From Bacteroidia bacterium (GTDB taxonomy: Bacteria > Bacteroidota > Bacteroidia > Flavobacteriales_D > Sanyastnellaceae), in assembly GCA_030427925.1 (NCBI GenBank), contig JAUICJ010000030.1, forward strand, positions 1-33,883: a stretch of DNA of 33,883 bases, read 5' to 3'. The number at the start of each line of letters is the position of its first letter. Position 1 is the stretch's first letter. Below, piece by piece: positions 8,821 through 33,883 of this stretch. The notes beneath the pieces were generated by a model that worked only from the letters and a program-made list of their open reading frames with translations, searched no databases and was not told the DNA's origin. Both the position numbers and the translations under genes were made by a program.

Positions 8821-8823
8821 TCG

Positions 8824-12908: not shown

Positions 12909-12960
12909 GAACGTAAAAATTAGCAACTAAACAACACAAATCTGCGATCAAGCAGGGCGG

Positions 12961-12968: not shown

Positions 12969-13189
12969 GCAAAAACACTTGCGCGGACACCGCGACCAGC
13001 CGCTGTCAGAAATCAACCACTGCCCTAACTTGAGAATAAAATCACGGTAATGCAACGTAAAAGACCGACTCACGTCGCTTGAACCATTTTAGCTTACATT
13101 TACCCTGCTCGAAATTGAACTTCGAGTACATCATTGTGCGCTTCGACTTGACCTCACCCACGTTCACCATCCGCTTCTGCCGCAGTTCC

Positions 13190-14725: not shown

Positions 14726-14739
14726 ACGTGAATTCACGT
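14726..14739. promoter_or_regulatory. Perfect 14-bp palindrome upstream of fibre gene A (operator candidate)
   Basis: ACGTGAATTCACGT is a perfect inverted repeat, preceded by an A-tract, and ends 130 bp before the ATG of fibre gene A. Fibre gene B has the same core GTGAATTCAC at the identical distance. The intervening sequence is also partly alignable without gaps (AAAA, ATGA, TCAT..ATG.CTT). A LuxR-like dimer site is the simplest reading, probably for the convergent HTH protein. Confidence 0.7.
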
Positions 14740-14834
14740 ATTCGCCCCGGAAAAACTTCATGATGAGTTCTCATTTATGTCTTGCATTCGCCGCTTTATC
14801 CCGCGAAAACCGGCCCCATAGCGCCCAGGCCTCG

Positions 14835-14842
14835 TAATTTTA
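14835..14842 (+). promoter_or_regulatory. -7 element candidate of fibre gene A
   Basis: TAATTTTA differs from TAnnTTTG at the last base and starts 34 bp before the ATG. The same hexamer TAATTT starts 34 bp before the ATG of fibre gene B. No TTG-type -33 box is visible, which would fit a promoter dependent on an activator. Confidence 0.5.
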
Positions 14843-14868
14843 TATATCATATTTCCACATCCATCGAG

Positions 14869-17616
14869 ATGAAACAATGTTTTAGCTTATTTCTTGGTTT
14901 GTTCATCGGATTCGCGGCCTCCGCACAAGCTCAGCAGCAGGCGGTGATCGGCGAGGAGCAGGGCAACAAGATTTATTTGAAGGTCGATGCGTTGATGCTG
15001 CGCGGGGATTTGAACACGCTCTTCGCGAAGTCCGCTGGGCTGCAAGACCAAATCAGCAACCTGTCCTGGTCGGATGTCCTCGAGAATGGAACCACGCCTG
15101 GCGTGGACGTCGATTTCTTCGGCTACGACGCCACCGGCCTCGGCCACGTGACGACTACCGGGACGTTCACTGGCGACAGCCTCGTTCTCAACAAGGACGC
15201 CGCGATCACCGGTCGCTTGAACGTGACGGACGTAACTTCGCTGAGCGACTCCCTCCTCGTGGCGGGCACGGTCGTCCTCAACGACTCGCTGCGGGTCGTG
15301 AAGGCGGCGAGCATCGGCGAGCGGCTCTACGTCACGGGCATCACGGCCCTCGGTGACAGCGTCCACGTGGTGGGCAACGTCGACTTCGACGCACTCTTCA
15401 ACGTGGACGGCGCGGCCACCTTCGGCAGCACGGTAGAAGTCACAGGCGTGGGCACGTTCCGCGACACCTTGAACGTGGACGGCGCGACCCTGCTCAACGA
15501 CTCCCTTAACGTCGACGGCAACACCTACCTCGAACAGGACCTCCAGGTCGACGGCAACACGAACATCGGCGGCACGGTCAACATCACCGGTGCGGTCACC
15601 CTCGGCGACGCCCTGAGCGTCACGGGCAAAACCTCCCTCGGCGACAGCCTCCTCGTCACGAACGGGGCCCAATTCGACAGCGGCGTGAACATCGACGGCA
15701 ACACGACCCTCAACGCGGTGACGGTAGACGGCGACCTCGACCTCAACGGCAACGCCGACATCAGCGGCACGCTCGACGTGCACGGCGCAACCACCCTCGC
15801 CGACTCCCTCACGGTGGAAGGCGAAACGATCCTCAACGACACGCTCAAAGTCAACGCCCCCGCTTTGATGAACGACTCGCTGCACGTGGCCGGCGGCGCT
15901 GGCTTCGGCTCGGACGTGACGGTGGACGGCGCGACGGCACTCGGCGGCAACCTCAACGTCACGGGCAACACGTCGCTCGGCGGCACGCTCGGCGTGAACG
16001 GCGTGACGAGCTTGAACGACAGTCTCCTCGTGACGGGTGGTGCGGATTTCGATAACGGCCTCAACGTGGACGGCAACGCGACCCTCAACACCGCCACGGT
16101 CAGCGGCACGACGACCTTGCAGGGCGAACTGACCGTCAATGCCGAGGCGACCTTCAACGACACCGTGCACTTCAGCAAGCCCGCCCTGTTCAGCGACAGC
16201 GTGGATTTTGCGGGCAACGTGAACGTGGGCGGAACGATGGAAGTGACGCAGCTCATCATCGACGGCGTGACCATTCCCGCGCTGGACAACACCGATGCGT
16301 TGCCGGAGGGCGACACGAATTTGTACTTCACGGCGGCTCGCGAGGCCGCGTTGCAAGCCCAAATCGACTTCATCGATTCGATGAACACCGTGTTGGCATC
16401 GACCATCGACAACCTACTCAATCAACTGTACGATCCCGCCACCTCGACCACAACCGCGGCAACTCCGGTGGTTGCGACCACGGCCACCCTGACCGCCACG
16501 TTCGACGATGGAGGAGCGGAACCGGAATCAGCCGGCTTCATCTTCTCGACCAGCCCCGCCTTCACCGACTCCACGGTGTATACCGTGACCCCGGGGGACG
16601 GCTCCATGTCGCACGCCCTCAGCGGATTGGAAAAGGGCACGACTTACTACTACAAGGCCTTTGTCGTGACCATCATGGGCCGCGCCGAGGGGGCCGTCGA
16701 AAACTTCACCACCATCGATGATGCGTCCGTCACCACATTGGCGGTGAACGATGCAGGCCAAACCACCGCCACCCTCCGCGGGAGCATCGCCGGCAACGGG
16801 GGAGGCACCATCTCAGCCGCGGGCTTCAAGTACGGAACCGCCGCGAACCTCGCCACCGCGACCACCCTCAACAACGCGGCCACCAGCGGAACCTACACGG
16901 AACCCCTGACCGATTTGGACCAAAACACCACCTACTACTACCACGCCTTCGCCACCAACGAAGCCGGAACCGCAGTCGGTGACACCCTCTCGTTCTCCAC
17001 CGTCGGCCCGTGCAACGGCGTCTTCACCTTGACTTACGAAGGATACACCTATCCCCTAATCGAGGCGGGAGGCGAATGCTGGATGGCCGAGAATTTCCGG
17101 GGGAGCTATTCAGGAAGTAGGAGCCGATGTGCTCCGCAAATTAGTAACACCAATCCTGGTATTCCCACCACAGATGGAAGCCAGACGATTTGCGGAATTG
17201 ATAACGATTACCAAGCTGCATTTGGATTCCTTTACCCCTCCTTCTTGGATTCGAACTGCCCCAGCGGTTGGAAGCTTCCGCGAGTTTCCGATTTCAGCGA
17301 CCTGATCGCAAGTGCAGGGGGAGACCCGTTGAAACTGATGTCTGCATCGAACTGGGGCGGAGCAACAACAGGAAACATCGGATTCAATGCACTACCCGGT
17401 GGGTTGACTGATGATGTAGGGCCGGGACAAGAAGATAATTTTTACATCGAGAACATACCCGCCCTAGCTAGCGATGGGATGGCAGTTTTTGCTTTGTACG
17501 GAGGCACCGGTGTTATTTCCGGGTCTGGAGCAAGTGCGGGTACGCAAAACTGGCCCGTGAGTACAGCTGGTGGAGGCGGAACAAATCGTGCTTCAGTGCG
17601 CTGCATCAAAGAATAA
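14869..17616 (+). CDS. Fibre protein A: secreted tail-fibre-like stalk, fibronectin-III-like modules and FISUMP tip
   Basis: ATG at 14869 gives 915 residues with a signal peptide (MKQCFSLFLGLFIGFAASAQAQ); an upstream TTG extension is non-coding in character. Residues about 85-475 are short repeats of the type LNV.G.TSL.DSL.V, a beta-solenoid-like stalk. The motif TDALPEGDTNLYFTAARE (about 475) resembles the STNLYYTDAR motif of phage tail fibres and is followed by a helical segment (about 495-525) that could trimerise. Two fibronectin-III-like modules follow (about 527-712, KGTTYYYKAFV, NTTYYYHAFATNEAGT), then a C-terminal FISUMP domain (about 715-915: ECWMAENFRG, CPSGWKLPRVSDF, GFNALPGG, ASVRCIKE). 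No T9SS C-terminal signal is recognisable, so how it reaches the surface is open. Bases from about 17100 are visibly less GC-rich than the stalk. Binding or adhesion is inferred. Confidence 0.85.
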   Translation: MKQCFSLFLGLFIGFAASAQAQQQAVIGEEQGNKIYLKVDALMLRGDLNTLFAKSAGLQDQISNLSWSDVLENGTTPGVDVDFFGYDATGLGHVTTTGTFTGDSLVLNKDAAITGRLNVTDVTSLSDSLLVAGTVVLNDSLRVVKAASIGERLYVTGITALGDSVHVVGNVDFDALFNVDGAATFGSTVEVTGVGTFRDTLNVDGATLLNDSLNVDGNTYLEQDLQVDGNTNIGGTVNITGAVTLGDALSVTGKTSLGDSLLVTNGAQFDSGVNIDGNTTLNAVTVDGDLDLNGNADISGTLDVHGATTLADSLTVEGETILNDTLKVNAPALMNDSLHVAGGAGFGSDVTVDGATALGGNLNVTGNTSLGGTLGVNGVTSLNDSLLVTGGADFDNGLNVDGNATLNTATVSGTTTLQGELTVNAEATFNDTVHFSKPALFSDSVDFAGNVNVGGTMEVTQLIIDGVTIPALDNTDALPEGDTNLYFTAAREAALQAQIDFIDSMNTVLASTIDNLLNQLYDPATSTTTAATPVVATTATLTATFDDGGAEPESAGFIFSTSPAFTDSTVYTVTPGDGSMSHALSGLEKGTTYYYKAFVVTIMGRAEGAVENFTTIDDASVTTLAVNDAGQTTATLRGSIAGNGGGTISAAGFKYGTAANLATATTLNNAATSGTYTEPLTDLDQNTTYYYHAFATNEAGTAVGDTLSFSTVGPCNGVFTLTYEGYTYPLIEAGGECWMAENFRGSYSGSRSRCAPQISNTNPGIPTTDGSQTICGIDNDYQAAFGFLYPSFLDSNCPSGWKLPRVSDFSDLIASAGGDPLKLMSASNWGGATTGNIGFNALPGGLTDDVGPGQEDNFYIENIPALASDGMAVFALYGGTGVISGSGASAGTQNWPVSTAGGGGTNRASVRCIKE

Positions 17617-17763
17617 ATCCAACAAAAGAATCGGTCAAAGCAAGTTTTAAAAGCCACCGCGGGCAGTGAGGGCCGCGCCATCTGATTGCTAACTCTCCTA
17701 TGAAGGTAAGGGGACCTGCGGGTCGATTGGCCTCGGCACCAGCAGCGGGCTGCGTTCCGAGGG

Positions 17764-19983
17764 TCACTCGCCCGATTGGATGCGGCGGATGGTGCGGGCG
17801 AGGTCGTCGTCGGGATGGAGCTCCCATTTTTGGCGTATGCTCGACCGCAAGTTGTAGACGTGGCCCTTCGTGCAGGCCAGTTTCCGCGCAATTTCCTCCA
17901 CGGTGAGGTGTTGGGCCAAATACACGGCCACCTCCAACTCCGAATCGCTCAGCAGCTGCAAGCGCTCATCCGCCGTCTGCAACGTGGACGGCTCGGACTT
18001 GAACACCCGCCAAGCCGTTTCAGCGTCCAAATGCCGCTCCGCCGATTCGATGCCCACGAACAACACGTCGTCGGCATGACCGTCCACCCTCAACAGCTCA
18101 CTCCGCCGGCGACGCAACACGCTCCCCCACCCGAAAAAGACCGCCGTGGGCAACAGCAACGCCCACAACCAAGGGCTCCCCTTCCCGTCCTTCAGCGCCT
18201 GCTGATACGCCTCGGTCGGATTCGTGGACCACACGGCGGAAGGCGCGCCTTGGTTGACGAAGTACAACTCCAAAAAACCCGCTTGGTACCAATGCCACAG
18301 CACCGAATCTGGAACGCGCGCCCATTCCGGCCGATCCGCGGAATCCAAAAACGCCACGTCATAAGGCGGCTGAAGACCGAACCACCCGCCTGAAGCAACC
18401 GCCGAATCCCACGCCGCCCGATCCTTCCCCAGCAACACACTCATCAGCGAATCGGCCGCCGGCGAGGCCGTGGCCAGCATCGGCCACCCCAGCACCAACA
18501 CCGCCATCAACTCCACCAACCGCTTCTTGAGCGAATCGTTGCCCGACAGCTCCAGGGCATTCCGCAAACCGTGCCGCACCTTGTACACGTGCGAAACGCT
18601 CACCCCCAAGCGCGCCGCGATGGCCTTCGTGTGCTCCCCGTTCGCCACCCCGATGGCCACGGCTTGCTCCAGTTTCGACCACTGCTGGAATTCGGGAATG
18701 GCGTCCAGGGATTTGGTCAGCCGCCTGCGCATCAGCTCCCCGAGGGCCACCACCGCCCGATTGCGCAAGGGTTTCGACCAGCGATCCTTGTGCAACAGGG
18801 CTTCGTCCACCGCCGACTCCAAGCTCGCCTGCGGAGCGTCACGCACCTCCCGCAAGGACTGCAATTCCAGGTGCATGCGCAGGGCAAAAACCAACGCCAC
18901 GACGAACAACGCCACCACCGCAGCCTGCCACCAACCGGCCCCACCCTCCAGAGGACGGTCCCCGTCGGAAATGTCCGCAGCGCAAGGCAAGTCCAATCCC
19001 CCGCGAAACGCAACCGGAATCGCGCGCAACCGGTCCCATTCCTCCTCCCATTTCGGCTCAAAAAGCGCCACGTTGGCCCCCAACGTCATCCCGACCTCAT
19101 CGCGGCTCATGCCATCCATCAGCGCCTGCAAGTGCGGGCGCGCCACCCGAAACCAGTCCTTTCGATTCGACCACTGAGCGTACATCGACAACGTCCAAAC
19201 CGCCGCCAATTCGCGTTGATCGAACGCCCCCGGCAAGCGAATCGCCTGCACCACACCCGCTGCTCGTTCCACATCCCCCATCCGCATGAAGGCGAGCAAT
19301 TGCGTGAGCAAAATGGCATTGCGCTCGTTGACGAACACTTGGCCTTGCTCGGGACTCTCGCTCAACAAGATGTCAATCTTCTCCAACGCCAATTCCGTCC
19401 AACTCAACGCATCCGAACACTGACCGACGACGTAGCTCACGTAGGCCAAATTGTTCATCTCCGTCGGATTGATGCCCTCCGGCTGGGCCGCATGCGCTTG
19501 TTCGAAGATGGCCAAGGCCTCTTGATACTCCCTTTGGTCCAACAACACCACCCCCAGCGCTTGCAACACCGCCTTCAGCTGCACGGACGATTCATTCTGG
19601 GCCGCGTCCGCAGCAAGGCGCCACCACTGCTCGGCCTCTTCCAACTCCCCGTTGCCGTAATGCGCAAAACCCAAGACGAAGAACAACGGACTGCCCCTCA
19701 TTTCGCAGGAATCCACCCGGTACGCCTCATCGAACGGATGCCCCATCGCCACCGCCGCTTGCCGCAATAAAAACTCACCCACCAGCAAGGAATCGCAATT
19801 CCCCAACTCCACGCCGACATCGTGGAGGCGTTCGCCCTGCAGCTGAAAATTGACCGGATTGAATTCGCACCGATTCAGCTCCTCGTTCATCACCTCCCAA
19901 AGTGAGTCCGCAGCCTGCGTGGGGTTGAGGAACCCCACCACGACCAACAGAAACGTACCGACGACTGAAACTGTGCATTTCAT
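17764..19983 (-). CDS. Membrane TPR sensor with two LuxR-like HTH domains, regulator A
   Basis: ATG at 19983 gives 739 residues with a signal peptide (about 1-25, ending NPTQA); an earlier in-frame ATG at 20022 would bury it. A TPR-like helical region spans about 80-320 (EEAEQWWRLAADA, YQEALAIFEQAHA). A transmembrane segment (about 351-369, WWQAAVVALFVVALVFAL) precedes a first LuxR-like HTH (about 437-478, AIAARLGVSVSHVYKVRHGL). A second hydrophobic stretch (about 489-506, ELMAVLVLGWPMLATA), a roughly 95-residue segment and a third membrane segment (about 604-622) lead to a second HTH (about 677-720, VEEIARKLACTKGHVYNLR). The two halves look like fused copies of a sensor-membrane-HTH plan. 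It is convergent with fibre gene A and probably controls it; this is inferred from layout and shared promoter motifs. The ligand is unknown. Confidence 0.8.
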   Translation of the reverse strand: MKCTVSVVGTFLLVVVGFLNPTQAADSLWEVMNEELNRCEFNPVNFQLQGERLHDVGVELGNCDSLLVGEFLLRQAAVAMGHPFDEAYRVDSCEMRGSPLFFVLGFAHYGNGELEEAEQWWRLAADAAQNESSVQLKAVLQALGVVLLDQREYQEALAIFEQAHAAQPEGINPTEMNNLAYVSYVVGQCSDALSWTELALEKIDILLSESPEQGQVFVNERNAILLTQLLAFMRMGDVERAAGVVQAIRLPGAFDQRELAAVWTLSMYAQWSNRKDWFRVARPHLQALMDGMSRDEVGMTLGANVALFEPKWEEEWDRLRAIPVAFRGGLDLPCAADISDGDRPLEGGAGWWQAAVVALFVVALVFALRMHLELQSLREVRDAPQASLESAVDEALLHKDRWSKPLRNRAVVALGELMRRRLTKSLDAIPEFQQWSKLEQAVAIGVANGEHTKAIAARLGVSVSHVYKVRHGLRNALELSGNDSLKKRLVELMAVLVLGWPMLATASPAADSLMSVLLGKDRAAWDSAVASGGWFGLQPPYDVAFLDSADRPEWARVPDSVLWHWYQAGFLELYFVNQGAPSAVWSTNPTEAYQQALKDGKGSPWLWALLLPTAVFFGWGSVLRRRRSELLRVDGHADDVLFVGIESAERHLDAETAWRVFKSEPSTLQTADERLQLLSDSELEVAVYLAQHLTVEEIARKLACTKGHVYNLRSSIRQKWELHPDDDLARTIRRIQSGE

Positions 19984-19989
19984 GTGCGC

Positions 19990-19997
19990 CAAAAATA
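19990..19997 (-). promoter_or_regulatory. -7 element TATTTTTG of regulator A, apparently giving a leaderless transcript
   Basis: The minus strand reads TATTTTTG, a full match to TAnnTTTG, with six bases between it and the ATG at 19983. Regulator B has TAGATTTG at the same six-base spacing. With the usual -7 geometry transcription would begin at or next to the start codon. Confidence 0.55.
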
Positions 19998-20093
19998 GCG
20001 CAGCAGCCCGCGCCCTTCTCATTTCACCCTTCGTACTGCAATCCCCGAAAAGCCCCCCGCAAACAAATGAAATGCAATTTTTTAAGTCCGAAT

Positions 20094-20100
20094 TTCACGT
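20094..20100 (-). promoter_or_regulatory. Half-site ACGTGAA upstream of regulator A
   Basis: The minus strand reads ACGTGAAATTC. The first seven bases equal one arm of the cassette A palindrome ACGTGAATTCACGT; the second arm is degenerate. It lies 111 bp from the start codon. A seven-base match alone could be chance; the parallel in regulator B strengthens it. Confidence 0.4.
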
Positions 20101-20142
20101 ACTCTCGCAAGCGAGAAGAAAACATGAAACCCCATCATGTAA

Positions 20143-20841
20143 TTATGTCATTCCGGCGGAATGGGCCGCGGCCAAGGAATGCGACCGCAAGACGGCGCTC
20201 AACCGTTCGGGCTGCTCCAATGTCATGAAATGTCCTGCCCCAGGCAACACAACGGGCGACACCATCCGGTGGGCTTTGAACAACCGATCTTCGGATCCGA
20301 CCACTTGCAGGTACCGCTCCGGCCGATCGCGCCTCGGCCAATCGAGGATGGCGTTCACCGCGAAGTGCAGGAACTCGGGGCCGTAGGTTTCGAGGTTTTC
20401 ATAGAACCAACTCCGGTCGTCGGCGTTGCGGAAACCCATGAAGGAATCGCTCAGGCGGTTGAGGCGCATCATGCCAGAGGGGGTGAACCAACGTCCCGTT
20501 CGGAGTGCGCGAAGGAGGTGCATCCGGTTGGGAAATTCATGGCGCGCGGCGGGGGCGCTGAGGAGCACGAGTTCGTCGGCGGGTCGCAAGGCGTGCAGTT
20601 CACGGGCGAGCATGCCGCCCATGGAGGAGCCGATGTACCAAACCGGACGCCCATCGACCGGCCACGGCACCTCCCGCACCAACATCGCAGCGTAGTCCGC
20701 GAGGCTCCGAACACCGGGCCGGAATTCCCAGCGCATCGCATGGACCTCACCGAACGACAAGTCGATGGGATGAAAGAGCCGCTCGTCGGCGGCCATGCCG
20801 GGGAGGAGGAAAAGGAACGGAAGCATGGGATGAAAGTGCAT
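20143..20841 (-). CDS. Alpha/beta-fold hydrolase
   Basis: The 232-residue protein starts at ATG 20841, preceded by an AAGGGG ribosome-binding-like sequence; a second ATG at 20826 is possible. It has the alpha/beta-hydrolase plan: oxyanion region FLLPGMAADERLF near the N-terminus, nucleophile elbow GSSMGG with Ser at about 73, acid GSEDRLF with Asp at about 184 and His in GAGHFM at about 203. There is no signal peptide, so it is probably cytoplasmic. The substrate cannot be read from sequence; the short lid region resembles small esterase-type members. It sits between the two fibre/regulator cassettes and is divergent from fibre gene B, so the cassette B palindrome also lies in its promoter region. 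Confidence 0.85.
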   Translation of the reverse strand: MHFHPMLPFLFLLPGMAADERLFHPIDLSFGEVHAMRWEFRPGVRSLADYAAMLVREVPWPVDGRPVWYIGSSMGGMLARELHALRPADELVLLSAPAARHEFPNRMHLLRALRTGRWFTPSGMMRLNRLSDSFMGFRNADDRSWFYENLETYGPEFLHFAVNAILDWPRRDRPERYLQVVGSEDRLFKAHRMVSPVVLPGAGHFMTLEQPERLSAVLRSHSLAAAHSAGMT

Positions 20842-20892
20842 TGATTTGGCCCCTTGAGTCAATGCTTCAGCGGGCCGGGAGGGGCAAAAAAT

Positions 20893-20906
20893 ATGTGAAT
20901 TCACAT
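20893..20906. promoter_or_regulatory. Perfect 14-bp palindrome upstream of fibre gene B (operator candidate)
   Basis: ATGTGAATTCACAT is a perfect inverted repeat after an A-tract. It ends 130 bp before the ATG of fibre gene B and 52 bp upstream of the divergent hydrolase start. It differs from the cassette A palindrome only at one symmetric base pair (T/A instead of C/G at the second and thirteenth positions). Confidence 0.7.
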
Positions 20907-21001
20907 GTTTTGGTCTTGAAAAGGCGATGAGAGCGGTTCATGAATGCCTTCATCCAGGCCAATTGCACTGCAGGATTCGACCGCCCAATCCACCAAAAAA
21001 C

Positions 21002-21009
21002 TAATTTCA
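21002..21009 (+). promoter_or_regulatory. -7 element candidate of fibre gene B
   Basis: TAATTTCA starts 34 bp before the ATG, the same position as TAATTTTA in fibre gene A. It differs from TAnnTTTG at the last two bases. No -33 TTG is visible at normal spacing. Confidence 0.45.
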
Positions 21010-21035
21010 ACTTCCGAAAATTTCATTCTGTCGAT

Positions 21036-23990
21036 ATGAACAAGCATTTCATCACCCTCCTGGCCCTCGTCACTGCGTGCATCACCAGCACCCTCGCTCA
21101 GCAAACGGCGGTCATCTCCGAGCAACAAGGAGCGAAGATTTACTTGAAGGTTGACGGGCTGCTCTTGCGCGGCGATCTCGACACGCTTTACGCGAAGGCT
21201 GCCGATTTGCAAGACCAAATCGACAACCTCTCCTGGGCCGACGTCCTGGAAAACGGAACCACGCCTGGCCAGGACGTCAACTTCTTCGGCTACGACGCCA
21301 CCGGCATTGGCCAAGTGACCACCACGGGCACCTTCACCGGCGACAGCCTCGTCCTCAACAAGGACGCCGCCATTACTGGCCGGTTGAACGTCACCGGCGT
21401 CACCTCACTCAGCGACTCCCTCCTCGTGGAAGGCACGGTGGTCTTCAACGACTCCCTGCGGGTCGTGAAAGCGACGAGCATCGGCGAACGACTCTACGTC
21501 ACCGGCGTGACAGCGCTCGGCGACAGCCTGCACGTCGTCGGCAACGTGGACTTCGATGCGCTCTTCAACGTGGACGGCGCCGCCACCTTCGGCAGCACGG
21601 TGGAAGTGACGGGCGTGGGCACCTTCCGCGACACCCTCAACGTAGACGGGGCCACCCTCTTGAACGATTCACTCAACGTGGACGGCAACACCTACCTCGA
21701 GCAGGACCTCCAAGTCGACGGCAACACGAACATCGGCGGCACGACGAACATCTCCGGAGCCGTCACCCTCGGCGACGTCCTCAGCGTAACCGGCAAAACC
21801 TCCCTCGGGGATAGCCTCCTCGTCACGGGCGGGGCCCAATTCCACAGCGGCGTGAACGTCGACGGCAACACGACCCTCAACGCCGTAACGATGGACGGCG
21901 ACCTCGATCTCAACGGCAACGCCGACATCAGCGGTACGCTCGACGTGCACGGCGCCACGACCCTCGCCGACTCGCTCACCGTTGAAGGCGAAACGATCCT
22001 GAATGACACACTCAAAGTCAACGCCCCTGCCCTCCTGAACGATTCGCTGCACGTGGCCGGCGGCGCCGGCTTCGGCTCGGACGTAACGGTGGACGGCGCG
22101 ACGGCACTCGGCGGTACGCTCAACGTCACGGGCAACACGTCGATCGGCGGCACGCTCGGCGTAACGGGCGTGACGAGCTTGAACGACAGCTTGCACGTCA
22201 GTGGCGGTGCGGACTTCGACAGCAACGTCAACGTGGACGGCAACACGACGCTCAACAACGCGACCGTCAGCGGAACGACGACCTTGCAGGGCGAGTTGAC
22301 GGCGAACGGGGAAGCGACCTTCAACGACACCGTGCATTTCAGCGCGCCCGCTTTGTTCAGCGACAGCGCGGATTTCGCGGGCAACGTCAACGTGGGCGGA
22401 ACGATGGAGGTCACGCAGCTCATCATCGATGGGGTGACCATTCCGGCGATGGACAACACGGATGCGTTGCCGGAGGGCGATACGAACTTGTATTTCACGG
22501 CGGCGCGCGAGGCGGCGCTGCAGGCCCAGTTGGACTTTGTGGATTCCGTGAATGCGGTACTTTCAGCCACCCTCGATAACCTGCTGAATCAGCTTTACGA
22601 CCCGGCTCAGGTCATCACCCAATCGGCCAGCCCGGTTGCTGCCTTTACCGCGTCCATCGGGGCAACGATCGATGACGGAGGGGCCGAGGTGGAAGGATCA
22701 GGGTTCGAGTTTTCGACGAACGCCGACATGAGCGACTCCACGGTGTTTGATGTGGTGCCGGGAGGAGCGAGTTTGGCCCAAGCACTGAGCAGTTTGAACA
22801 AAGGGACGACTTACTACTACCGCGCGTTCGTGGAGACCATCATGGGGCGCGTGGAAGGGAATGTGCAGAGCTTCACGACCGTCGATGACGCCCAAGTTTC
22901 TTCGCTTTCAGCGACCAGTGTAGGCGCGTTTTCCGCAAACCTCCGAGGCCAAATCACCAGCACCGGCGGCGGAACCATCAGCGCAACCAGCTTCCAATAC
23001 AGCACGAACTCTTCCCTGAGCGGCGCCTCCACGAAATCCGGCAGCTCGACGTCCGGAAGCTTCAATGGCAGCGTCACGGGCCTTTCCGCAGGAACGACCT
23101 ACTACTTCCGGGCACGTGCGACCAACGAAGCGGGCACCGCGAACGGCTCCACACTGAACTTCACCACCATCGGACTTGCTTCGGTGAGCACGGGGAGCGC
23201 CTCTTCCGTCGCATCCACCAGCGCGAATTTGAGCGGAAACGTTACGGGCGATGGAGGCGGCACGGTATCCGCAGCAGGATTTGAACTGAGTACGAACTCT
23301 TCATTCAGCGGTGCCACCTCGGTGCAAGCAGGAACGACAAGCGGGGCCATTTCCGCTGCAGCGACTGGGCTGAATGGCAGCACGACCTACTACTACCGAG
23401 CCTTCGTAACGAATGAAGCCGGAACGGCTTACGGCAATTCAGGAAGTTTCACGACTGCGACCCCGGGACCATGCAATGATTTGACCACATTGTCTTACAA
23501 TGGAACCACTTATCCTTTGGTTGAAGTCAACAACCAGTGTTGGTTTGGAAGCGACTTGGTCACTACCAAGGACAACACCGGGTCAAACCTCGTGAACACT
23601 CCTATGAATTCGCAATTTAGCTGGATGGACCAAAGTCTTCTCAACCTTTACACACTCAACAACGCGAACAAACACATTTACAGCGGTGGACGATCTCCCT
23701 TTTCAGGCATTTGCCCATCAAATTGGCATCCAGCAAACAACATGGATTGGATGTCCTTAAGTACTTCCGAATTGGGTGAACTCAATTTGACCGATTGTAC
23801 CATCGGTAACAGCATATTTCATAATGGAACTTATACCCTGCAGAATGCTGGCGCTTATCATGCAGGTGGTACCTACAGTTATTTTCTATTCACGAACAGC
23901 ATTGTCGGACCAGCAGGGGCTTGTCCCCTTTCGGGAGGAAGCTCCGGTAACACCATCTTGGGAGGAATGGTTCGTTGTGTGAAAAACTAA
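21036..23990 (+). CDS. Fibre protein B: paralog of fibre A with three fibronectin-III-like modules and a diverged FISUMP tip
   Basis: ATG at 21036 gives 984 residues with a signal peptide (MNKHFITLLALVTACITSTLAQQ). The stalk (about 85-475) is nearly identical to fibre A at protein level, including NVDGATLLNDSLNVDGNTY, but many codons differ synonymously. TDALPEGDTNLYFTAARE occurs at the same residue position (about 475). Three rather than two fibronectin-III-like modules follow (about 527-808, GTTYYYRAFVETIMGR, GTTYYFRARATNEAGT, STTYYYRAFVTNEAGT). The C-terminal FISUMP-type domain (about 810-984: NNQCWFGSDL, ICPSNWHPANNMDW, MVRCVKN) is strongly diverged from that of fibre A and encoded by lower-GC DNA. 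No T9SS signal is visible. The convergent regulator B gene ends 43 bp downstream. Surface-binding function is inferred. Confidence 0.85.
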   Translation: MNKHFITLLALVTACITSTLAQQTAVISEQQGAKIYLKVDGLLLRGDLDTLYAKAADLQDQIDNLSWADVLENGTTPGQDVNFFGYDATGIGQVTTTGTFTGDSLVLNKDAAITGRLNVTGVTSLSDSLLVEGTVVFNDSLRVVKATSIGERLYVTGVTALGDSLHVVGNVDFDALFNVDGAATFGSTVEVTGVGTFRDTLNVDGATLLNDSLNVDGNTYLEQDLQVDGNTNIGGTTNISGAVTLGDVLSVTGKTSLGDSLLVTGGAQFHSGVNVDGNTTLNAVTMDGDLDLNGNADISGTLDVHGATTLADSLTVEGETILNDTLKVNAPALLNDSLHVAGGAGFGSDVTVDGATALGGTLNVTGNTSIGGTLGVTGVTSLNDSLHVSGGADFDSNVNVDGNTTLNNATVSGTTTLQGELTANGEATFNDTVHFSAPALFSDSADFAGNVNVGGTMEVTQLIIDGVTIPAMDNTDALPEGDTNLYFTAAREAALQAQLDFVDSVNAVLSATLDNLLNQLYDPAQVITQSASPVAAFTASIGATIDDGGAEVEGSGFEFSTNADMSDSTVFDVVPGGASLAQALSSLNKGTTYYYRAFVETIMGRVEGNVQSFTTVDDAQVSSLSATSVGAFSANLRGQITSTGGGTISATSFQYSTNSSLSGASTKSGSSTSGSFNGSVTGLSAGTTYYFRARATNEAGTANGSTLNFTTIGLASVSTGSASSVASTSANLSGNVTGDGGGTVSAAGFELSTNSSFSGATSVQAGTTSGAISAAATGLNGSTTYYYRAFVTNEAGTAYGNSGSFTTATPGPCNDLTTLSYNGTTYPLVEVNNQCWFGSDLVTTKDNTGSNLVNTPMNSQFSWMDQSLLNLYTLNNANKHIYSGGRSPFSGICPSNWHPANNMDWMSLSTSELGELNLTDCTIGNSIFHNGTYTLQNAGAYHAGGTYSYFLFTNSIVGPAGACPLSGGSSGNTILGGMVRCVKN

Positions 23991-24033
23991 TTCTACGCGA
24001 GAAACAGAAGTTCCCTATTGCAGTGCACCGGGT

Positions 24034-26247
24034 TCACCGGCCGGACTGAATGCGGTGGATCGTTCGGGCGAGGTCCTCGTCGGGCTCGAGGCGCCATTTT
24101 TGGCGGATGCTCGACCGGAGGTTGTAAACGTGGCCTTTCGTGCACGCGAGTTGGCGAGCGATTTCCTCCACCGAAAGGTGTTGGGCCAAACACGCAGCCA
24201 CCTCCCGCTCCGAGTCCGTCAGGAGCAACCACCGTTCGTCGTCGGGCGACGGCTCGACCGGTGACGCCTTGAAGGCACGCCACGCCGCCTCGGCCTCGGG
24301 ATGGGGGGAGGCGGCGTGGATGCCGGCGAACAGGATTTGGCCTGCATCCCCGCCAAACCCCGAGAGCAGCTCGCGGCGCTGGCGGACCAACACCACCCCG
24401 GCCGCGGCCAACGCCGTGCCAAGCGCGAGCAACGCCCACGCCAACTGATTCAAGTTCCCCGTACGCAAGTGCTCCAATCGCGAGGCCGCCCGATCCGGCG
24501 ACCACTCCCCCTTGGCGTGCAGCGCACCGTATTCCAACTCAAGCGCCTCGTAAGCCGCTTGGTACCAATACCAAAGCGCCGAATCCGCCACGGCGGCCCA
24601 AGCCGGCCGCACGCCCTGCGGCTGAAACGCCACATCGTACGGCTCGGGCAAGTCGCCCCAACGGCCCGAAGCCACTGCCTCCTGCCACGCCACACGGTCC
24701 CCTTCGAACAAGATGTACCGAAGCGAGTCCGTCGATTGGGCCGCCATCGGCAGCCCCAAAAGCAGCATCGCCATGAGCTCAATCAACCGCTTTTTCAACG
24801 AGTCGTTTCCGGACAACTCCAAGGAGGAACGCAGCGCGTGACGCGACTTGTAAACCAACGACGTGCTCACGCCCAACCGCGCAGCAATGGCCTTCGTATG
24901 CTCCCCATTCGCCACGCCCAAGGCCACCTGTTGCTCCAGTTCCGACCACGCTTGGAACTCCGCACTGTCCTCGAGTGAAATCGAGAGCCGACGGCGCATG
25001 AGCTCGCCCAACGCCACCACGGCGCGCTCCTTTCGCCCAGCAGACAAGCCGCCCTTGTTCGTGATCGCCTCCTCAACCGCCAATTCCAAACTGTTCTGCG
25101 GCGCCTCCTTCACCCCACGCAATGCCCAGACCCGTGCGAACACAAAGGCCACGAAACCCAACATCGCCACGAAAAAAGCAGCCGCCCCCCACCGAAACCA
25201 AGCCCAAGCTCCCGAAGATCGCTCCATCGACACCTCTTCCGCACAAGCCAACGGCAGTCCCCCGCGAAACGCCAAGGGAACTTCCAACAACGCGTCCCAA
25301 TGCGCCTCCCAATCGCCATCGAACAACACCACGTTCGCCCCCAACGTTGAAGCCACCTCCTCCGGATTGCACTGGTCATGCAAGGCCACCAAATGAGGAT
25401 GCACCACCGCAAACCAGTCCTTCCGGCCCGACCACTGGGCGTAGAGCGTAAGAATGCAAACCGCCGCCAACTCCCGCTGCTCGAAGGCACCAGGGATCCG
25501 CAAGGCCTCCACCGTCCCATCGGCGGCGGCGCGGTCGCCTTGACGCATTTGGGCCTGCAATTGAGTCAGCAGGATGGCGTTGCGCTCGTTGATGAACACC
25601 TCCGCTTCAGCGGGTTTTTCTTTCAACAGGATTTGGATTTTCTCCAAGGCCAAATCCGCCCACCGCACCGACTCCTCGCACCTCCCCACCAAGTAACTCG
25701 CGTACGCCAAATTGTTCATCTCCGTCGGATTCGCCCGATCTGGGAACTCCGCGTGCGCCTGCTCGAAGTAGCCCAACGCCTCGCCATACCGACGCTGCCC
25801 CATCATCACCACGCCCAGGGCTTGAAGCGCAGCATGGCGCTGAGCCGGCGACTTCCCCGCTGCAGCTTCGGCGGTTGCCCGCCACCAGCGCTCCGCGTCC
25901 TTCGCCTTCCCCGCGGCATAGGCTTCCCACCCGATGACGAACAGGAGCGGGCTTTGGGTGCGTTCGCAGTCGTGCCCCATCGCATCGGGACCGACGGACT
26001 TCCCCAACTCCAAGGCCGCACTCCGAAGCAGGTACTCCGCCACCAGCAACGTGTCGCAATCCCCCAAGCGCTCCCCCACGTCCTGCATCCGCTCCCCCTC
26101 CAATTGCAGGTTCACACCATTCCGGTTCGCCGCCTTGAACTTGCTGATCATCACCTCCCACGTGTCAGCCGCTGACGCCTCGCCCAACCCCATCAACAAT
26201 GCCACCCCCAACGCGGCCACTTTCCAAATGAATACAAACCCCTTCAT
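24034..26247 (-). CDS. Membrane TPR sensor with two LuxR-like HTH domains, regulator B
   Basis: ATG at 26247 gives 737 residues; an upstream TTG extension would precede the signal peptide (MKGFVFIWKVAALGVALLMGLGEASA) and is rejected. The order equals regulator A: TPR-like region (about 80-330, AERWWRATAEAA, YGEALGYFEQAHAEF), membrane segment (about 350-371), HTH1 (about 436-475, AIAARLGVSTSLVYKSRHAL), a second leader-like hydrophobic stretch (about 488-504), a roughly 100-residue segment, a further membrane segment and a C-terminal HTH2. The HTH2 recognition region CTKGHVYNLRSSIRQKW is identical to regulator A, whereas HTH1 differs (STSLVYKSRHALRSSL versus SVSHVYKVRHGLRNAL). It is the convergent partner of fibre gene B and is probably its regulator; this is inferred. 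Confidence 0.8.
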   Translation of the reverse strand: MKGFVFIWKVAALGVALLMGLGEASAADTWEVMISKFKAANRNGVNLQLEGERMQDVGERLGDCDTLLVAEYLLRSAALELGKSVGPDAMGHDCERTQSPLLFVIGWEAYAAGKAKDAERWWRATAEAAAGKSPAQRHAALQALGVVMMGQRRYGEALGYFEQAHAEFPDRANPTEMNNLAYASYLVGRCEESVRWADLALEKIQILLKEKPAEAEVFINERNAILLTQLQAQMRQGDRAAADGTVEALRIPGAFEQRELAAVCILTLYAQWSGRKDWFAVVHPHLVALHDQCNPEEVASTLGANVVLFDGDWEAHWDALLEVPLAFRGGLPLACAEEVSMERSSGAWAWFRWGAAAFFVAMLGFVAFVFARVWALRGVKEAPQNSLELAVEEAITNKGGLSAGRKERAVVALGELMRRRLSISLEDSAEFQAWSELEQQVALGVANGEHTKAIAARLGVSTSLVYKSRHALRSSLELSGNDSLKKRLIELMAMLLLGLPMAAQSTDSLRYILFEGDRVAWQEAVASGRWGDLPEPYDVAFQPQGVRPAWAAVADSALWYWYQAAYEALELEYGALHAKGEWSPDRAASRLEHLRTGNLNQLAWALLALGTALAAAGVVLVRQRRELLSGFGGDAGQILFAGIHAASPHPEAEAAWRAFKASPVEPSPDDERWLLLTDSEREVAACLAQHLSVEEIARQLACTKGHVYNLRSSIRQKWRLEPDEDLARTIHRIQSGR

Positions 26248-26253
26248 GACCAC

Positions 26254-26261
26254 CAAATCTA
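26254..26261 (-). promoter_or_regulatory. -7 element TAGATTTG of regulator B, apparently giving a leaderless transcript
   Basis: The minus strand reads TAGATTTG, a full match to TAnnTTTG, with six bases to the ATG at 26247. Element and spacing parallel regulator A. Confidence 0.55.
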
Positions 26262-26358
26262 ACCCTGCTCGCCGAACATGAGACACGCAACACAAGTGAA
26301 CACAATTACACCGCAAAGCAGCCTGAAAGCCTTGTCGGACGAGGCTTTACTCGCATTC

Positions 26359-26368
26359 ATTCACATAT
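26359..26368 (-). promoter_or_regulatory. Ten-base half-site ATATGTGAAT upstream of regulator B
   Basis: The minus strand ATATGTGAAT is identical to ten bases of the cassette B palindrome region (20891-20900) and lies about 112 bp from the regulator B start codon. The second arm reads GAATG and is not symmetric. Matching position and variant argue for autoregulation. Confidence 0.5.
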
Positions 26369-27794: not shown

Positions 27795-27876
27795 GGGTTG
27801 AAAATAGCCCTTTTCGCCGAAGGACCGAACCCGGTTCAGTCGGGTGCACGTTGATACCGAGTACCTTGGACAGCAT

Positions 27877-29984: not shown

Positions 29985-32900
29985 TCAGTCCACCGTTTGG
30001 ATGGTAATGGTGACAAAATTCGTGCCGTTCCCTGTGTCATTCAACTTGACGTTGCCCCCGCCCGTGTAATTCCGAGCATCAATGGTCACAGCGCCTGCGT
30101 GCGTATCGATGAAGGTAGAAACTGTGCCTGAACCCTGGAGCCAAGTGTTATTGCCTGGTTCGATGTGTGCGGTCTGAGACAGTTCTGCGTTGGTATTGGT
30201 GTTGTAGATTTTGAACCGGCGCCATCCTCCACCCCAATCGGTGCCTGCCCAGCCCAAGTTCAAGTCGACGCGGTATACACGCCCCTGCGGCAAGGTGATT
30301 TCGCTGTTATTCGCAAGCACAAAACCTCCAGAGTTAATTTCCGTGACAGGAAAGTTGATTCTCGCTTGATAGAGCGGCCCATCAAAGTCATTGTCGTTGC
30401 CAAACCATTGCTCTGCATTGCCGCGGAATTGCGCGTACTTCGGAGCACCGCTTCCGAAGTCTTGCCACGATGCGTTGCCGCTCGCATCCGACACGAGGAC
30501 CTTGCCCGCCGATTGGTTGCCGTCGATGACGCGCACCGCATTCGTCACCAAGCTGTCCGCCGTGATGTCATCGAACGTCACGTCCGCCGTCGTCGCCACG
30601 TCTTGTCCGATGGAGATTTCGTTGTCGGTGTTCACCGTCACGCCTGTGCCGCCCGAGATGTTCACGCGGGATAGGCCGCCTTCCGCCTTCGTCGACTTGA
30701 ATCGGAAGCTCACTTTCACGGCGTGGGGGTCGGTCATTTGGAAAGTGAATCCAATGTACTGCCAGTGGCCAGTACTGTTCGAGTCAGTATTTCCCAACCG
30801 GAACTCCGTCGCACTGTAGGGCACCACCATGAGCCTCGAGTACGCCCCTGCCGTATTCGTGGCCCATCCGGTTTCCCCTTCAGGAAGCACAGCGCGAAAA
30901 CCATCGTAAGTCCAGACGCCTGCCGAGGTGATGGTGCTAGCTGCAGTGGAAACCGAATGGAAACTCAAGTCAAATTCATACCCAGCGGGCAACGTGAAGA
31001 TGCGCGACTCAGACGTTCCACCTGCAGCCCCTGCGTTGTTGGTGAACGCATACTCCATGTCCACTGTGCAGAACCCGGTACCATCGTCCGTCAACGCGAT
31101 CTCATCAACGAGCATGTTCGTCGGCTTCGTGATGGGGGTGTTGATGCCGCGCATCGTGACCGGCTCCCGAATGAGGATGTCGCCCGACTCCGTGATGGTG
31201 CTCGGCGCGGGCGCCGAACCGTTGTCCGCTTCGGAAACAGCAGTTGCAACCAAACTGTTCTCTCCCCAGAGGCCAGTACCGAAGTTATACAGCAGGCCGG
31301 TTGAATTCGTGGAACCGTGAACATCATTTGGGCCGACGAACCAGTAATAGCGTTGGATGGAATTGCCGGAATTCCGGATCACCACCGAGCCTGTGGCCAA
31401 TCCATAAGTCGCTGGACTCACCGCGCTACCCGCAATGATCGAAGCGCCGAGCACAGAGGCTCCCTGGAAGGTATTGGGATCGGTGGAGAATCCAGACCGA
31501 ACCCAAATTGCGGCCTCATCTTGACCATTGACCGCATCCGATGCAATGATTGAATTCGCCTGCACATTCCAATCGCCGGGGGGCAAATCGATGTAGGACC
31601 CCGTATTCACAGCAGTTGAGATGTTTGAAAAAACCTGAAGTGGCGTTTGGGAGAGAACCCCCGTTACCGTTACGGATGGGTTGTAGGGCTCAGTAGCCGG
31701 CAAGGTGACCCAAGTGGCTTCACCATTCGCATTCGACTGCAAGACCTTGTTTGCGCCTTGCGATCCGTTCGCATACTTGAACGCCGAACCGATGGCCAAT
31801 CCCGGCGTGCTGATGCTGTCCGCAACGAGCGTGCCCGTCATCCGCGCTCCGTCGTTCACGATCAAGCTGTCGCTCAGGACGACGGCCTTCGTTGCAAACA
31901 AGCTGTCGCTGAACGTGGCCGTACCGCCCACCGTCAAGGCCGACGTCATGGCCAGGCTGTCGGCCGTCACGTCATCGAAGGTCACGTCGCTCGTCGTGCC
32001 CACGGCTTGGCCGATGGAGATGACGTTGTCCGTCACGTCCACGCCCGTGCCCGCCGTGTAAGGCGACACCGCGGCCTGCCACGTCGCCTTGCCGTTTGCG
32101 TCCGAGGTCAGCACCTTGCCCGCGGCTTGGTTGCCGTCTTGGATTTGGAAACCGCCCGAAAGGGCCAAACCTCCCGCGACCACGCTGTCCGCATGCAACG
32201 TCAACGCCACGCGCGCACCTGAACTGACCACCAAGCTGTCCGCTACCGTCAATGAGCCGGTTGCCGCAATCGAATCCACACTCAACTCGTCGAAGGTCAC
32301 GTCGCTCGTCGTGCCCACGGCTTGGCCGATGGAGATGACGTTGTTCGTCACGTCCACGCCCGTGCCCGCCGTATAAGGCGACACCGCGTCTTGCCACGTC
32401 GCCTTGCCGTTCGCGTCCGAGGTCAGCACCTTGCCTGCAGCTTGGTTGCCGTCGGTGATGCGGAGGCCCGCCGTGATGAGGCTGTCGGCCGTGACGTCCG
32501 CAAACGTCACGTCGCTGTCCGTGCCCACGGCTTGGCCGATGGAGATGACGTTGTTCGTCACGTCAACGCCCGTGCCCGCCGTGTAAGGCGAGACCGCGTC
32601 TTGCCACGTCGCATTGCCGTTCGCGTCGGATGTCAGGACGCGGCCGGCTGATTGGTTGCCGTCTTGGATTTGGACCTTGCCTGCGATGGCCAAACCGCCA
32701 GCCGACAAGCTGTCCGCCACCACCGTCGCCGCAAAGCGCGCTCCCGACGCCACCAACAAGCTGTCGCCCAACTCGGCGCGGCCCGTCAAGTTCAACGCGC
32801 CCGTCGCAGCGATCGAATCCACGCTCAACTCATCGAACGTGACATCGCTCGTCGTGGACACCTCCTGGCCGATCGACACCACGCCCGAGTTCACGCTGAC

Positions 32901-33883
32901 GCCCGTTCCGCCACTGAAGGCAGCACGCGCCCGGGCATCCGTGTAGTACAAATTCGTCGAGCCTTCCGACAAGGCGTCCGTATTGTGGTTGCTGATGTCG
33001 TCCACTTGGCCGTTGATGACGTCCGTGACGCTCAGGCTGTCCGCCGTCACCGTGGCTGATGCGGTGATCCCGGCAAACGATACGTTGTCCGTCGTGCCGA
33101 CGGACTGGCCGATGGCAATGGTCCCCGTTGCAGACGTGTACGTCACGCCAGTACCTCCTGATACGGAACCGCGCGCCCGTGCGTCTGTGTAGTACAGGTT
33201 GGTCGAGCCCTCGGGCAATGCATCCGTGTCGTCAATCGCTGGAATCTCCACGCCATTGATGACCAGCGAGGTCACCTCGAGTGCACCCGAAATGCCCATG
33301 TTGCCCGCTACGTGGACGCTGTCGCCGAACAGCGCCGGCGCGTTAACGTGCAGCGAGTCGTTGAACGTGGTCTCGCCGTTGATCGTCACGTCATCCCCCA
33401 ACGTCGTCGTGCCCGTGACGTTCATGGTGCCGCCCACCGTCGAGTTGCCCGTGATGGTCACGTCCTCGCCAAAAGCCGCACCGCCGCCAACGTACAAGCT
33501 GTCACTGAACAACCCCGGTGCGTCCACATGCAACGTGTCCTTCAACGTCGTTTCGCCGTTCACCGTCAGGTTGTCACCCAACGTTGTCGTGCCCGTCACG
33601 TTCATCGTACCGCCCACGGACGAGTTGCCCGTGATCGTCACGTCATCACCGAACGCCGCACCGCCGCCAACGTACAGGCTGTCGCTGAACAAGCCCGGGG
33701 CGTTCACATGCAATGTGTCGCTCAACGTCGTCTCGCCGCTTACCGTCAGGTTGTCACCCAAAGTCGTGGCTCCTGTTACGTTCATCGTTCCACCCACGGA
33801 CGAATTGCCACCCACCGACGAATTGCCCGTGATCGTCACGTCATCGCCAAACGCCGCGCCCCCACCAACGTACAAGCTGTCGC
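29985..33883 (-). CDS. Fibre protein C: large tail-fibre-like repeat protein, N-terminus outside window
   Basis: The frame is open at the right edge, so the start and any signal peptide are missing; at least 1299 codons are present. The distal part is a stalk of 60-residue repeats (LYVGGGAAFGDDVTITGNSS, TMNVTGTTTLGD, GLFSDS). Then come TDALPEGSTNLYYTDARARG and TDALSEGSTNLYYTDARARA, motifs typical of phage tail fibres, and several copies of DGNQAAGKVLTSDANGKATW with SPYTAGTGVDVTNNVISIG. A non-repetitive insert with a jelly-roll-like look and less GC-rich DNA (about 30750-31700) follows, then one more repeat block and a C-terminal beta-rich tip of about 150 residues (VTITIQTVD end). It shares the stalk style of fibres A and B but has no FISUMP domain and no T9SS signal that I recognise. 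Function as a surface fibre is inferred. Confidence 0.8.
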   Translation of the reverse strand, partial: DSLYVGGGAAFGDDVTITGNSSVGGNSSVGGTMNVTGATTLGDNLTVSGETTLSDTLHVNAPGLFSDSLYVGGGAAFGDDVTITGNSSVGGTMNVTGTTTLGDNLTVNGETTLKDTLHVDAPGLFSDSLYVGGGAAFGEDVTITGNSTVGGTMNVTGTTTLGDDVTINGETTFNDSLHVNAPALFGDSVHVAGNMGISGALEVTSLVINGVEIPAIDDTDALPEGSTNLYYTDARARGSVSGGTGVTYTSATGTIAIGQSVGTTDNVSFAGITASATVTADSLSVTDVINGQVDDISNHNTDALSEGSTNLYYTDARARAAFSGGTGVSVNSGVVSIGQEVSTTSDVTFDELSVDSIAATGALNLTGRAELGDSLLVASGARFAATVVADSLSAGGLAIAGKVQIQDGNQSAGRVLTSDANGNATWQDAVSPYTAGTGVDVTNNVISIGQAVGTDSDVTFADVTADSLITAGLRITDGNQAAGKVLTSDANGKATWQDAVSPYTAGTGVDVTNNVISIGQAVGTTSDVTFDELSVDSIAATGSLTVADSLVVSSGARVALTLHADSVVAGGLALSGGFQIQDGNQAAGKVLTSDANGKATWQAAVSPYTAGTGVDVTDNVISIGQAVGTTSDVTFDDVTADSLAMTSALTVGGTATFSDSLFATKAVVLSDSLIVNDGARMTGTLVADSISTPGLAIGSAFKYANGSQGANKVLQSNANGEATWVTLPATEPYNPSVTVTGVLSQTPLQVFSNISTAVNTGSYIDLPPGDWNVQANSIIASDAVNGQDEAAIWVRSGFSTDPNTFQGASVLGASIIAGSAVSPATYGLATGSVVIRNSGNSIQRYYWFVGPNDVHGSTNSTGLLYNFGTGLWGENSLVATAVSEADNGSAPAPSTITESGDILIREPVTMRGINTPITKPTNMLVDEIALTDDGTGFCTVDMEYAFTNNAGAAGGTSESRIFTLPAGYEFDLSFHSVSTAASTITSAGVWTYDGFRAVLPEGETGWATNTAGAYSRLMVVPYSATEFRLGNTDSNSTGHWQYIGFTFQMTDPHAVKVSFRFKSTKAEGGLSRVNISGGTGVTVNTDNEISIGQDVATTADVTFDDITADSLVTNAVRVIDGNQSAGKVLVSDASGNASWQDFGSGAPKYAQFRGNAEQWFGNDNDFDGPLYQARINFPVTEINSGGFVLANNSEITLPQGRVYRVDLNLGWAGTDWGGGWRRFKIYNTNTNAELSQTAHIEPGNNTWLQGSGTVSTFIDTHAGAVTIDARNYTGGGNVKLNDTGNGTNFVTITIQTVD
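31981..32660 (-). repeat. Long near-identical internal repeats in fibre gene C
   Basis: A stretch of about 150 bases beginning GTCACGTCGCT on the plus strand recurs at 31981, 32296 and 32506 (spacings 315 and 210 nt, both whole codons). The copies at 31981 and 32296 differ at few bases, unlike the synonymous scatter seen between fibre genes A and B, suggesting recent duplication or conversion. Confidence 0.75.
33298..33883 (-). repeat. 180-nt tandem stalk repeats in fibre gene C, one with an 18-nt internal duplication
   Basis: The ACGTACA(A/G)GCTGTC motif occurs at about 33491, 33671 and 33869. The first interval is 180 nt (60 codons); the second is 198 nt because the GNSSVG hexapeptide is doubled (near 33790-33825). 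The array continues beyond the right edge. Confidence 0.75.

What the first reader, a model, noticed from the sequence alone, without database searches (positions are those of the whole stretch)
14726..26368. Duplicated two-gene cassette: secreted tail-fibre/FISUMP protein facing a two-headed membrane LuxR-like regulator
The same convergent pair (fibre gene plus, TPR-membrane-HTH gene minus) occurs twice with equal domain order, and the promoters of all four genes carry related elements. I know of no named system with this composition: an exported repeat stalk with FISUMP tip, paired with a signal-peptide-bearing TPR sensor that has two DNA-binding domains. A sensor that monitors fibre export or ligand binding and adjusts fibre expression is one model. 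Protein families and layout are read from sequence; the regulatory link is inferred.
Basis: partly seen in the sequence, partly recalled or inferred. Interest (0 to 1): 0.85.

Follow-up and report, generated by a model that had tools for sequence, protein, structure and literature searches.

The report
Surface fibres with paired membrane regulators
This stretch of a flavobacterium-like genome holds two copies of a long exported fibre gene next to membrane-anchored gene switches with two DNA-binding heads; relatives show the switch normally sits back-to-back with the fibre and probably controls it, so it is an unusual, testable fibre-control module rather than the facing pair first described.

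Summary
The duplicated cassette is real: F1 (14869-17616 +), R1 (17764-19983 -), F2 (21036-23990 +), R2 (24034-26247 -). F1/F2 stalks are 90% identical, their FISUMP tips 27%. R1/R2 are 56% identical: signal peptide, TPR, membrane helix, HTH, hydrophobic segment, short domain, membrane helix, HTH. The convergent pairing is not the conserved unit. Of 9 strong regulator relatives outside the window (three genomes), 8 are directly DIVERGENT from a fibre gene, 1 from another secreted protein; none has a fibre as convergent neighbour. So R1 most likely goes with F2, across one hydrolase gene. At 7 of 11 strong loci the two heads are separate genes (A: TPR-membrane-HTH; B: short-membrane-HTH); the window form is a fusion whose inner hydrophobic segment sits where B's signal peptide was. 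AYGTGA occurs in 13 of 13 promoter regions of this set against 15 of 57 other intergenic regions (post hoc). The palindrome AYGTGAATTCACRT occurs exactly three times in the genome, each before a fibre/FISUMP gene, about 136 bp before both F1 and F2. Best reading: lineage-specific membrane one-component regulators of surface fibres. Regulation itself is inferred, not shown.

The parts
14726..14739 (.). 14-bp palindrome ACGTGAATTCACGT upstream of F1; centre about 136 bp before the F1 start codon
14869..17616 (+). F1: secreted fibre (signal-peptide-like N-terminus, repeat stalk, predicted long helix, FN3-like region, FISUMP tip)
   Evidence: (model of low confidence)
17764..19983 (-). R1: fused two-headed membrane regulator (ORF could extend upstream to 20022)
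20095..20100 (-). AYGTGA half-site upstream of R1
20143..20841 (-). alpha/beta-hydrolase gene between R1 and F2, same direction as R1 (ORF could extend to 20904); probably not part of the module
   Evidence: Abhydrolase_6; matches in 9 of 30 genomes searched, own included, and in G024 on another contig than its regulator
20893..20906 (.). 14-bp palindrome ATGTGAATTCACAT between the hydrolase and F2; centre about 136 bp before the F2 start codon
21036..23990 (+). F2: paralogous fibre; against F1 the stalk is 90%, the FN3/linker part 58% and the tip 27% identical
24034..26247 (-). R2: paralogous fused regulator, 56% identical to R1 (ORF could extend upstream to 26316)
26361..26366 (-). AYGTGA half-site upstream of R2
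29985..33881 (-). third stalk-type fibre gene, cut by the contig end, no Pfam FISUMP match

Best explanation
This is part of a lineage-specific set of surface-fibre modules. A typical module has a fibre gene and, transcribed away from it, inner-membrane one-component transcription factors: A (signal peptide, periplasmic TPR solenoid, one membrane helix, cytoplasmic LuxR/GerE-type HTH) and B (signal peptide, short extracytoplasmic domain, membrane helix, GerE-type HTH). A and B are neighbouring, often overlapping genes; in the lineage leading to R1 and R2 they fused into one ORF. I infer that the TPR domain reads an extracytoplasmic state (fibre export intermediate, peptide or ligand) and that the heads bind AYGTGA half-sites in the divergent region to control fibre transcription. 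In the window R1 is most likely the regulator of F2 (divergent, one hydrolase gene in between) and may also act on F1, whose palindrome lies at the same 136-bp distance. Shown: gene architecture, divergent synteny, one fused clade, motif enrichment. Inferred: membrane topology, cognate control, its direction, the signal.
For: Divergent synteny: of 11 strong A genes (E <= 1e-150; these 11 are also the rows of the profile) the 9 outside the window are all divergent from their upstream neighbour: 5 from a window-type fibre (C24, C14, G042 C4, G042 C344, G024 C135), 3 from another tail-fibre-like repeat protein (C3, C8, G042 C144), 1 from a 1307-aa secreted protein followed by a window-type fibre (C48). 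These loci were found by regulator similarity, not by fibres. Fusion: the 4 fused ORFs form one clade (100/100); the B gene of G042 C4 has its own signal-peptide-like start, and the matching place in R1 is hydrophobic segment 489-507. DNA element: AYGTGA in 13/13 regions vs 15/57 controls, 6.3 vs 1.5 per kb; the exact 14-bp palindrome occurs 3 times in 2.95 Mb, each before a fibre/FISUMP gene. Structure model: TPR helices, membrane-type helix, HTH, membrane-type helix, HTH in this order.
Against: No expression, binding or topology data. R2 has no divergent fibre (HIT/HNH genes upstream on its own strand) and F1 has a PorP/SprF gene upstream on its own strand, so two of the four window genes do not follow the rule. 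The motif was picked after looking at the regions; three genomes supply the 13 regions, one the 57 controls. The exact palindrome is absent from the other strong divergent regions, which have only half-sites; with one mismatch there are two more sites in the own genome (one inside a long ORF on C47, one on C32 not examined) and one in G042 (not examined). 7 of 10 family genomes with the fibre N-terminus have no strong A gene. Weaker relatives: 4 of 23 genes outside the window are not divergent, others are divergent from non-fibre genes (C36, C39), and two are convergent with a fibre or FISUMP gene (C8, G042 C266). Beyond the convergent neighbour of the C48 regulator lies a FISUMP gene on the facing strand.
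Confidence: 0.68

Rival explanations
1. One reading: each regulator belongs to the fibre it faces (F1-R1, F2-R2), and the tandem copy is a duplication of that convergent pair.
For: The repeat offsets (F 6167 bp, R 6261-6276 bp) fit a tandem duplication of an F-R unit, and R1 and R2 are sisters (100/99). Two weaker relatives are also convergent with a fibre or FISUMP gene: C8 (553 aa, which is at the same time divergent from a FISUMP gene) and G042 C266 (530 aa).
Against: 0 of 9 strong relatives outside the window have a fibre as convergent neighbour, 8 of 9 are divergent from one. Fibre relations do not follow the regulators: F1's stalk is closer to the C24 fibre (95-96%) than to F2 (90%).
Confidence: 0.15
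2. The regulators are general membrane TPR/LuxR regulators of many secreted genes; nearness to fibres reflects the abundance of secreted repeat genes in this genome.
For: 60 FISUMP matches in the genome, 57 over the cut-off. Weaker relatives are divergent from other genes: C45 and G042 C32 from other proteins with signal-peptide-like starts, C36 and C39 from non-fibre genes.
Against: Stalk-type fibres are few (12 matches to the fibre N-terminus in the genome), yet 8 of 9 strong regulators outside the window are directly divergent from a fibre.
Confidence: 0.15
3. The fibre genes belong to a prophage or other mobile element and the regulators to its control region.
For: Stalk and tail-repeat proteins match PHROGs structural and tail-fibre families.
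Against: A viral-contig scan with the fibre N-terminus confirmed none of 40 candidate stretches. Signal-peptide-like starts, FISUMP tips and a neighbouring PorP/SprF gene fit a cell-surface protein.
Confidence: 0.02

Closest known systems
SusR-type regulators of Bacteroides (PMC3878776, passages read)
   Same: Bacteroidota-specific regulator with periplasmic ligand binding and a C-terminal HTH, controlling nearby genes for surface functions.
   Different: SusR is a maltose-binding regulator of sus operons with predicted tandem boxes 67 or 77 bp apart; here TPR sensor, two GerE-type heads or an A/B gene pair, and fibre genes as partners. Homology to SusR was not tested.
ToxR/TcpP-type membrane one-component regulators and their gene pairs (recalled, no call)
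   Same: Membrane-tethered DNA-binding proteins that read the periplasm, often in operonic pairs.
   Different: Opposite predicted topology (HTH N-terminal there, C-terminal to the membrane helix here); no TPR; no fusion of two heads.
Fib_succ_major / FISUMP proteins (PF09603, TIGR02145)
   Same: C-terminal domain of F1 (above Pfam's cut-off, just below NCBIfam's) and, by similarity to other tips, F2; 60 matches in the genome.
   Different: Here mounted on a phage-tail-fibre-like stalk that is much more conserved among paralogues than the tips.
Phage tail-fibre and hexapeptide-like repeat proteins (phrog_697, phrog_4549; LpxA/LpxD as weak hits)
   Same: Short-period repeat stalk.
   Different: Bacterial secreted protein with a FISUMP tip; no relative confirmed in viral contigs.

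Membership tests
LuxR/GerE-type transcription regulators | GerE HTH | tested here: met
   PF00196 over cut-off (23.5) in R1 (34.5) and R2 (38.6) at the C-terminal head; the first head matches HTH_23 over cut-off and, far below cut-off, UhpA/MctR-type regulators
LuxR/GerE-type transcription regulators | receiver or autoinducer-binding domain as in classical NarL/LuxR proteins | tested here: not met
   only TPR and HTH-type matches at E <= 0.01, so a membrane one-component form, not a NarL response regulator or AHL receptor
SusR family | sequence homology to SusR (BT3705) | not tested
   SusR sequence not fetched
SusR family | location beside susC/susD or glycan-use genes | tested here: not met
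   no SusC/SusD match among the 10 window proteins scanned, which cover the genes from 13079 on; four genes at 2-12926 were not scanned
FISUMP proteins | PF09603 / TIGR02145 over curated cut-off | tested here: inconclusive
   F1 39.5 vs 33.9 bits (Pfam), 40.2 vs 41.65 (NCBIfam); F2 22.4 and 16.7, below both, though F2's tip matches other FISUMP tips
T9SS cargo | C-terminal sorting domain | tested here: not met
   no such Pfam match in F1, F2 or the third fibre at E <= 0.01; a PorP/SprF gene is nearby
Diversity-generating retroelement target | reverse transcriptase in the genome | tested here: not met
   PF00078: 0 matches in the 99.5%-complete genome; control genomes with a match 3 of 14

The most novel reading that the evidence does not exclude
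The fused regulator is a membrane polyprotein: the old signal peptide of B, now internal, is still cut by signal peptidase, so one ORF delivers two separate membrane transcription factors in fixed ratio that together gauge fibre export and switch among paralogous fibres with a near-constant stalk and diverged tips. Seen by eye only (no signal-peptide predictor was run): the inner segment keeps a basic start, a hydrophobic core and a small-residue end in R1, in C24 and in the C18 long protein, which falls outside the fused clade and may be a second fusion (the tree flags long branches there).
Probability: 0.2. Interest if true: 0.78.

Novelty: new variant of a known kind. Interest (0 to 1): 0.55.

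Why it matters
How Bacteroidota control surface fibres and FISUMP proteins seems little studied: my searches found only two papers with the full FISUMP family name (listing only). A divergent, dedicated membrane regulator beside a fibre, with a shared DNA element, makes that control directly testable. The A/B split pairs and their fusion also show how a two-headed membrane transcription factor can arise, and raise the question whether an internal signal peptide is still cut. The paralogues pair a conserved stalk (90-96% identity among F1, F2 and C24) with fast-diverging tips (27-40%), with no reverse transcriptase detected in the genome.

Tried and rejected
Named relatives with the fused-regulator profile: 99 candidate stretches, none confirmed; the second genome-contig scan, with the fibre N-terminus, confirmed 6 of 129 and named two of the relevant MAGs. 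Phage origin of the fibres: none of 40 candidate stretches confirmed. Diversity-generating retroelement: no reverse transcriptase found. AlphaFold of F1: mean pLDDT 48.6, so no fold search was made with it. PDB fold search with the R1 model returned mostly TPR-solenoid proteins, among them PilF and RapI; not informative on the ligand. The 15-row regulator alignment put the HTH of split A proteins on the second head and was not used further. The order-level search scored only 3 candidates per genome and is weak evidence of absence.

Errors of mine found on checking: the F2 and C24 tip sequences, and some FISUMP queries, were cut out of frame, so their 'no similarity' and missing FISUMP labels were wrong. 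One search repeats them in frame: the tips are homologous but diverged, and the 2772-aa convergent neighbour at G042 C266 (L112) is FISUMP. Searches translated the B genes of C8 and G042 C144 in a wrong frame; one search gives the open frames. Loci L116 and L117 were fetched because of their fibres; the divergence count of the strong set does not use them. Some upstream ORFs (L102, L172) may be spurious calls.

Literature: eight full-text searches gave no paper on this combination; only PMC3878776 was opened (passages); of the others only the listing was seen.

Full report
What is there. The window is the whole of contig C10 of a 2.95-Mb, 99.5%-complete genome of 51 contigs. Between 14726 and 26368 lie F1 (+), R1 (-), an alpha/beta-hydrolase gene (-), F2 (+) and R2 (-). 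Repeat search finds the F and R stretches duplicated about 6.2 kb apart. R1 and R2 are 56% identical; R1 is 35% and 33% identical to two further fused regulators on contigs C24 and C48. A third stalk-type fibre, cut by the contig end and without a Pfam FISUMP match, runs on the minus strand from 33881 to 29985.

Fibres. F1 and F2 start with a signal-peptide-like segment, followed by a conserved N-terminal module, a short-period repeat stalk similar to phage structural and tail-fibre families, a predicted long helix, FN3-like regions and a tip (the model has low confidence). In frame, stalk / FN3-linker / tip identities are 90 / 58 / 27% for F1-F2 and 96 / 82 / 40% for F1-C24: the tips are homologous FISUMP domains that have diverged far more than the stalks. 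F1's tip is FISUMP by Pfam; F2's is below the cut-off but matches other FISUMP tips. The genome has 60 FISUMP matches, 57 over the cut-off, and 12 matches to the fibre N-terminal module. No reverse transcriptase was found, so a diversity-generating retroelement is not the likely cause of tip divergence. F1 and F2 have no T9SS sorting-domain match, so how they would cross the outer membrane is unknown.

Regulators. Hydrophobic segments in R1 lie at 1-19, 354-372, 489-507 and 605-623, with HTH regions after the second and after the fourth. The model (mean pLDDT 70.8, pTM 0.46, below 50 at 494-511) shows TPR-like helices to about residue 319, a long helix at 349-381, HTH helices at 437-476, a long helix at 604-631 and HTH helices at 680-719. 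If the N-terminus is exported, both heads are cytoplasmic (inference).

Synteny test. Regulator-like genes in the own genome were found by sequence and their surroundings read. Of the 11 strong A genes (7 in the own genome, 3 in G042, 1 in G024; all are rows of the profile used), the 9 outside the window are all divergent from their upstream neighbour: 5 from a window-type fibre, 3 from another repeat fibre (two such proteins, from C8 and C3, match PHROGs tail-fibre families), and 1 (C48) from a 1307-aa secreted protein with a window-type fibre behind it. None has a fibre as convergent neighbour, although at C48 a FISUMP gene lies one gene beyond the convergent neighbour. In a wider table of 25 regulator-like genes, 19 of the 23 outside the window are divergent; 6 of these from a window-type fibre, 3 from a tail-repeat fibre and 2 from a FISUMP protein (C12, C8). 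A convergent fibre or FISUMP neighbour occurs in 4 of 25: R1, R2, the C8 relative and the G042 C266 relative. Two of the 23 (L116, L117) were fetched because of their fibres; L116 is one of the 6. In the window R1 is the one with a fibre, F2, lying divergently behind the hydrolase gene; R2 and F1 have no such partner. A 70%-identical hydrolase in G024 lies on another contig than the regulator there, which suggests that the hydrolase is an insertion.

Range. In the family, 3 of 114 genomes have an A gene at E <= 1e-15 and 10 of 114 have the fibre N-terminal module; the 3 are among the 10. Across the order 3 of 399 sampled genomes matched, with only 3 candidates scored per genome.

Split and fused forms. 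At C14, C3, C8, C12 and C39 and in G042 and G024, A and B are separate ORFs, overlapping or close together. The B of G042 C4 begins with its own signal-peptide-like segment. The four fused ORFs form one clade with 100/100 support and R1 and R2 are sisters; the long proteins of C18 and G042 C14 fall outside that clade (weakly supported deep forks and long branches are flagged there). Fusion with the former B signal peptide now internal is the simplest reading.

DNA element. k-mer comparison pointed to ATGTGA- and TCATGA-type words. AYGTGA is in 13 of 13 promoter regions of the set (23 sites, 6.3/kb) against 15 of 57 other intergenic regions of the own genome (1.5/kb), and TCATGA in 10 of 13 against 5 of 57. 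Both were chosen after inspection, so the p-values are optimistic. The 10-bp core GTGAATTCAC occurs at 9 places in the genome and 0 times in the reversed-pattern control. The full 14-bp palindrome is exact at three: before F1, before F2 and before a FISUMP gene on C8. Of the other six core sites five lie inside called genes and one is intergenic. With one mismatch, two more sites occur in the own genome and one in G042.

Verdict. The most likely function is control of the divergent fibre by membrane one-component regulators. Signal, direction of control and any processing of the fused protein are open.

Noticed in passing
window 27844-29859 +: One ORF with a lycopene cyclase domain followed by a beta-carotene 15,15'-dioxygenase (BCD) domain, a fused carotenoid/retinal gene.
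   Followed up: no
L173 2475-4232, L176 3853-5598, L177 699-2468; L023 16443-18155: TPR proteins with an AraC-type HTH lie directly upstream, in the same direction, of stalk-type fibres in G042, and one lies about 1.8 kb downstream of the C24 fibre: a second regulator type tied to fibres.
   Followed up: partly
L028 12307-14748 and L099 712-3150: 814- and 813-aa relatives outside the fused clade, divergent from genes for proteins with signal-peptide-like starts; L028 has two HTH regions, L099 an internal hydrophobic segment. Possibly an independent fusion.
   Followed up: partly
window 2-6619 -, 6616-8820 -, 8824-9876 -, 13079-14335 +: Giant repeat-rich secreted protein cut by the contig end, a protein with an OmpA-like end (by eye), and two PorP/SprF-like genes (13079-14335 by Pfam; 8824-9876 by eye).
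   Followed up: no
L108 2997-7269 (contig C8): A weak regulator relative is divergent from a FISUMP gene that carries the exact 14-bp palindrome, centred about 40 bp before its likely start.
   Followed up: partly
L179 / G024 C135: The MAG record titled Chryseobacterium gleum matches by contig a genome placed in this family; the label looks doubtful.
   Followed up: no
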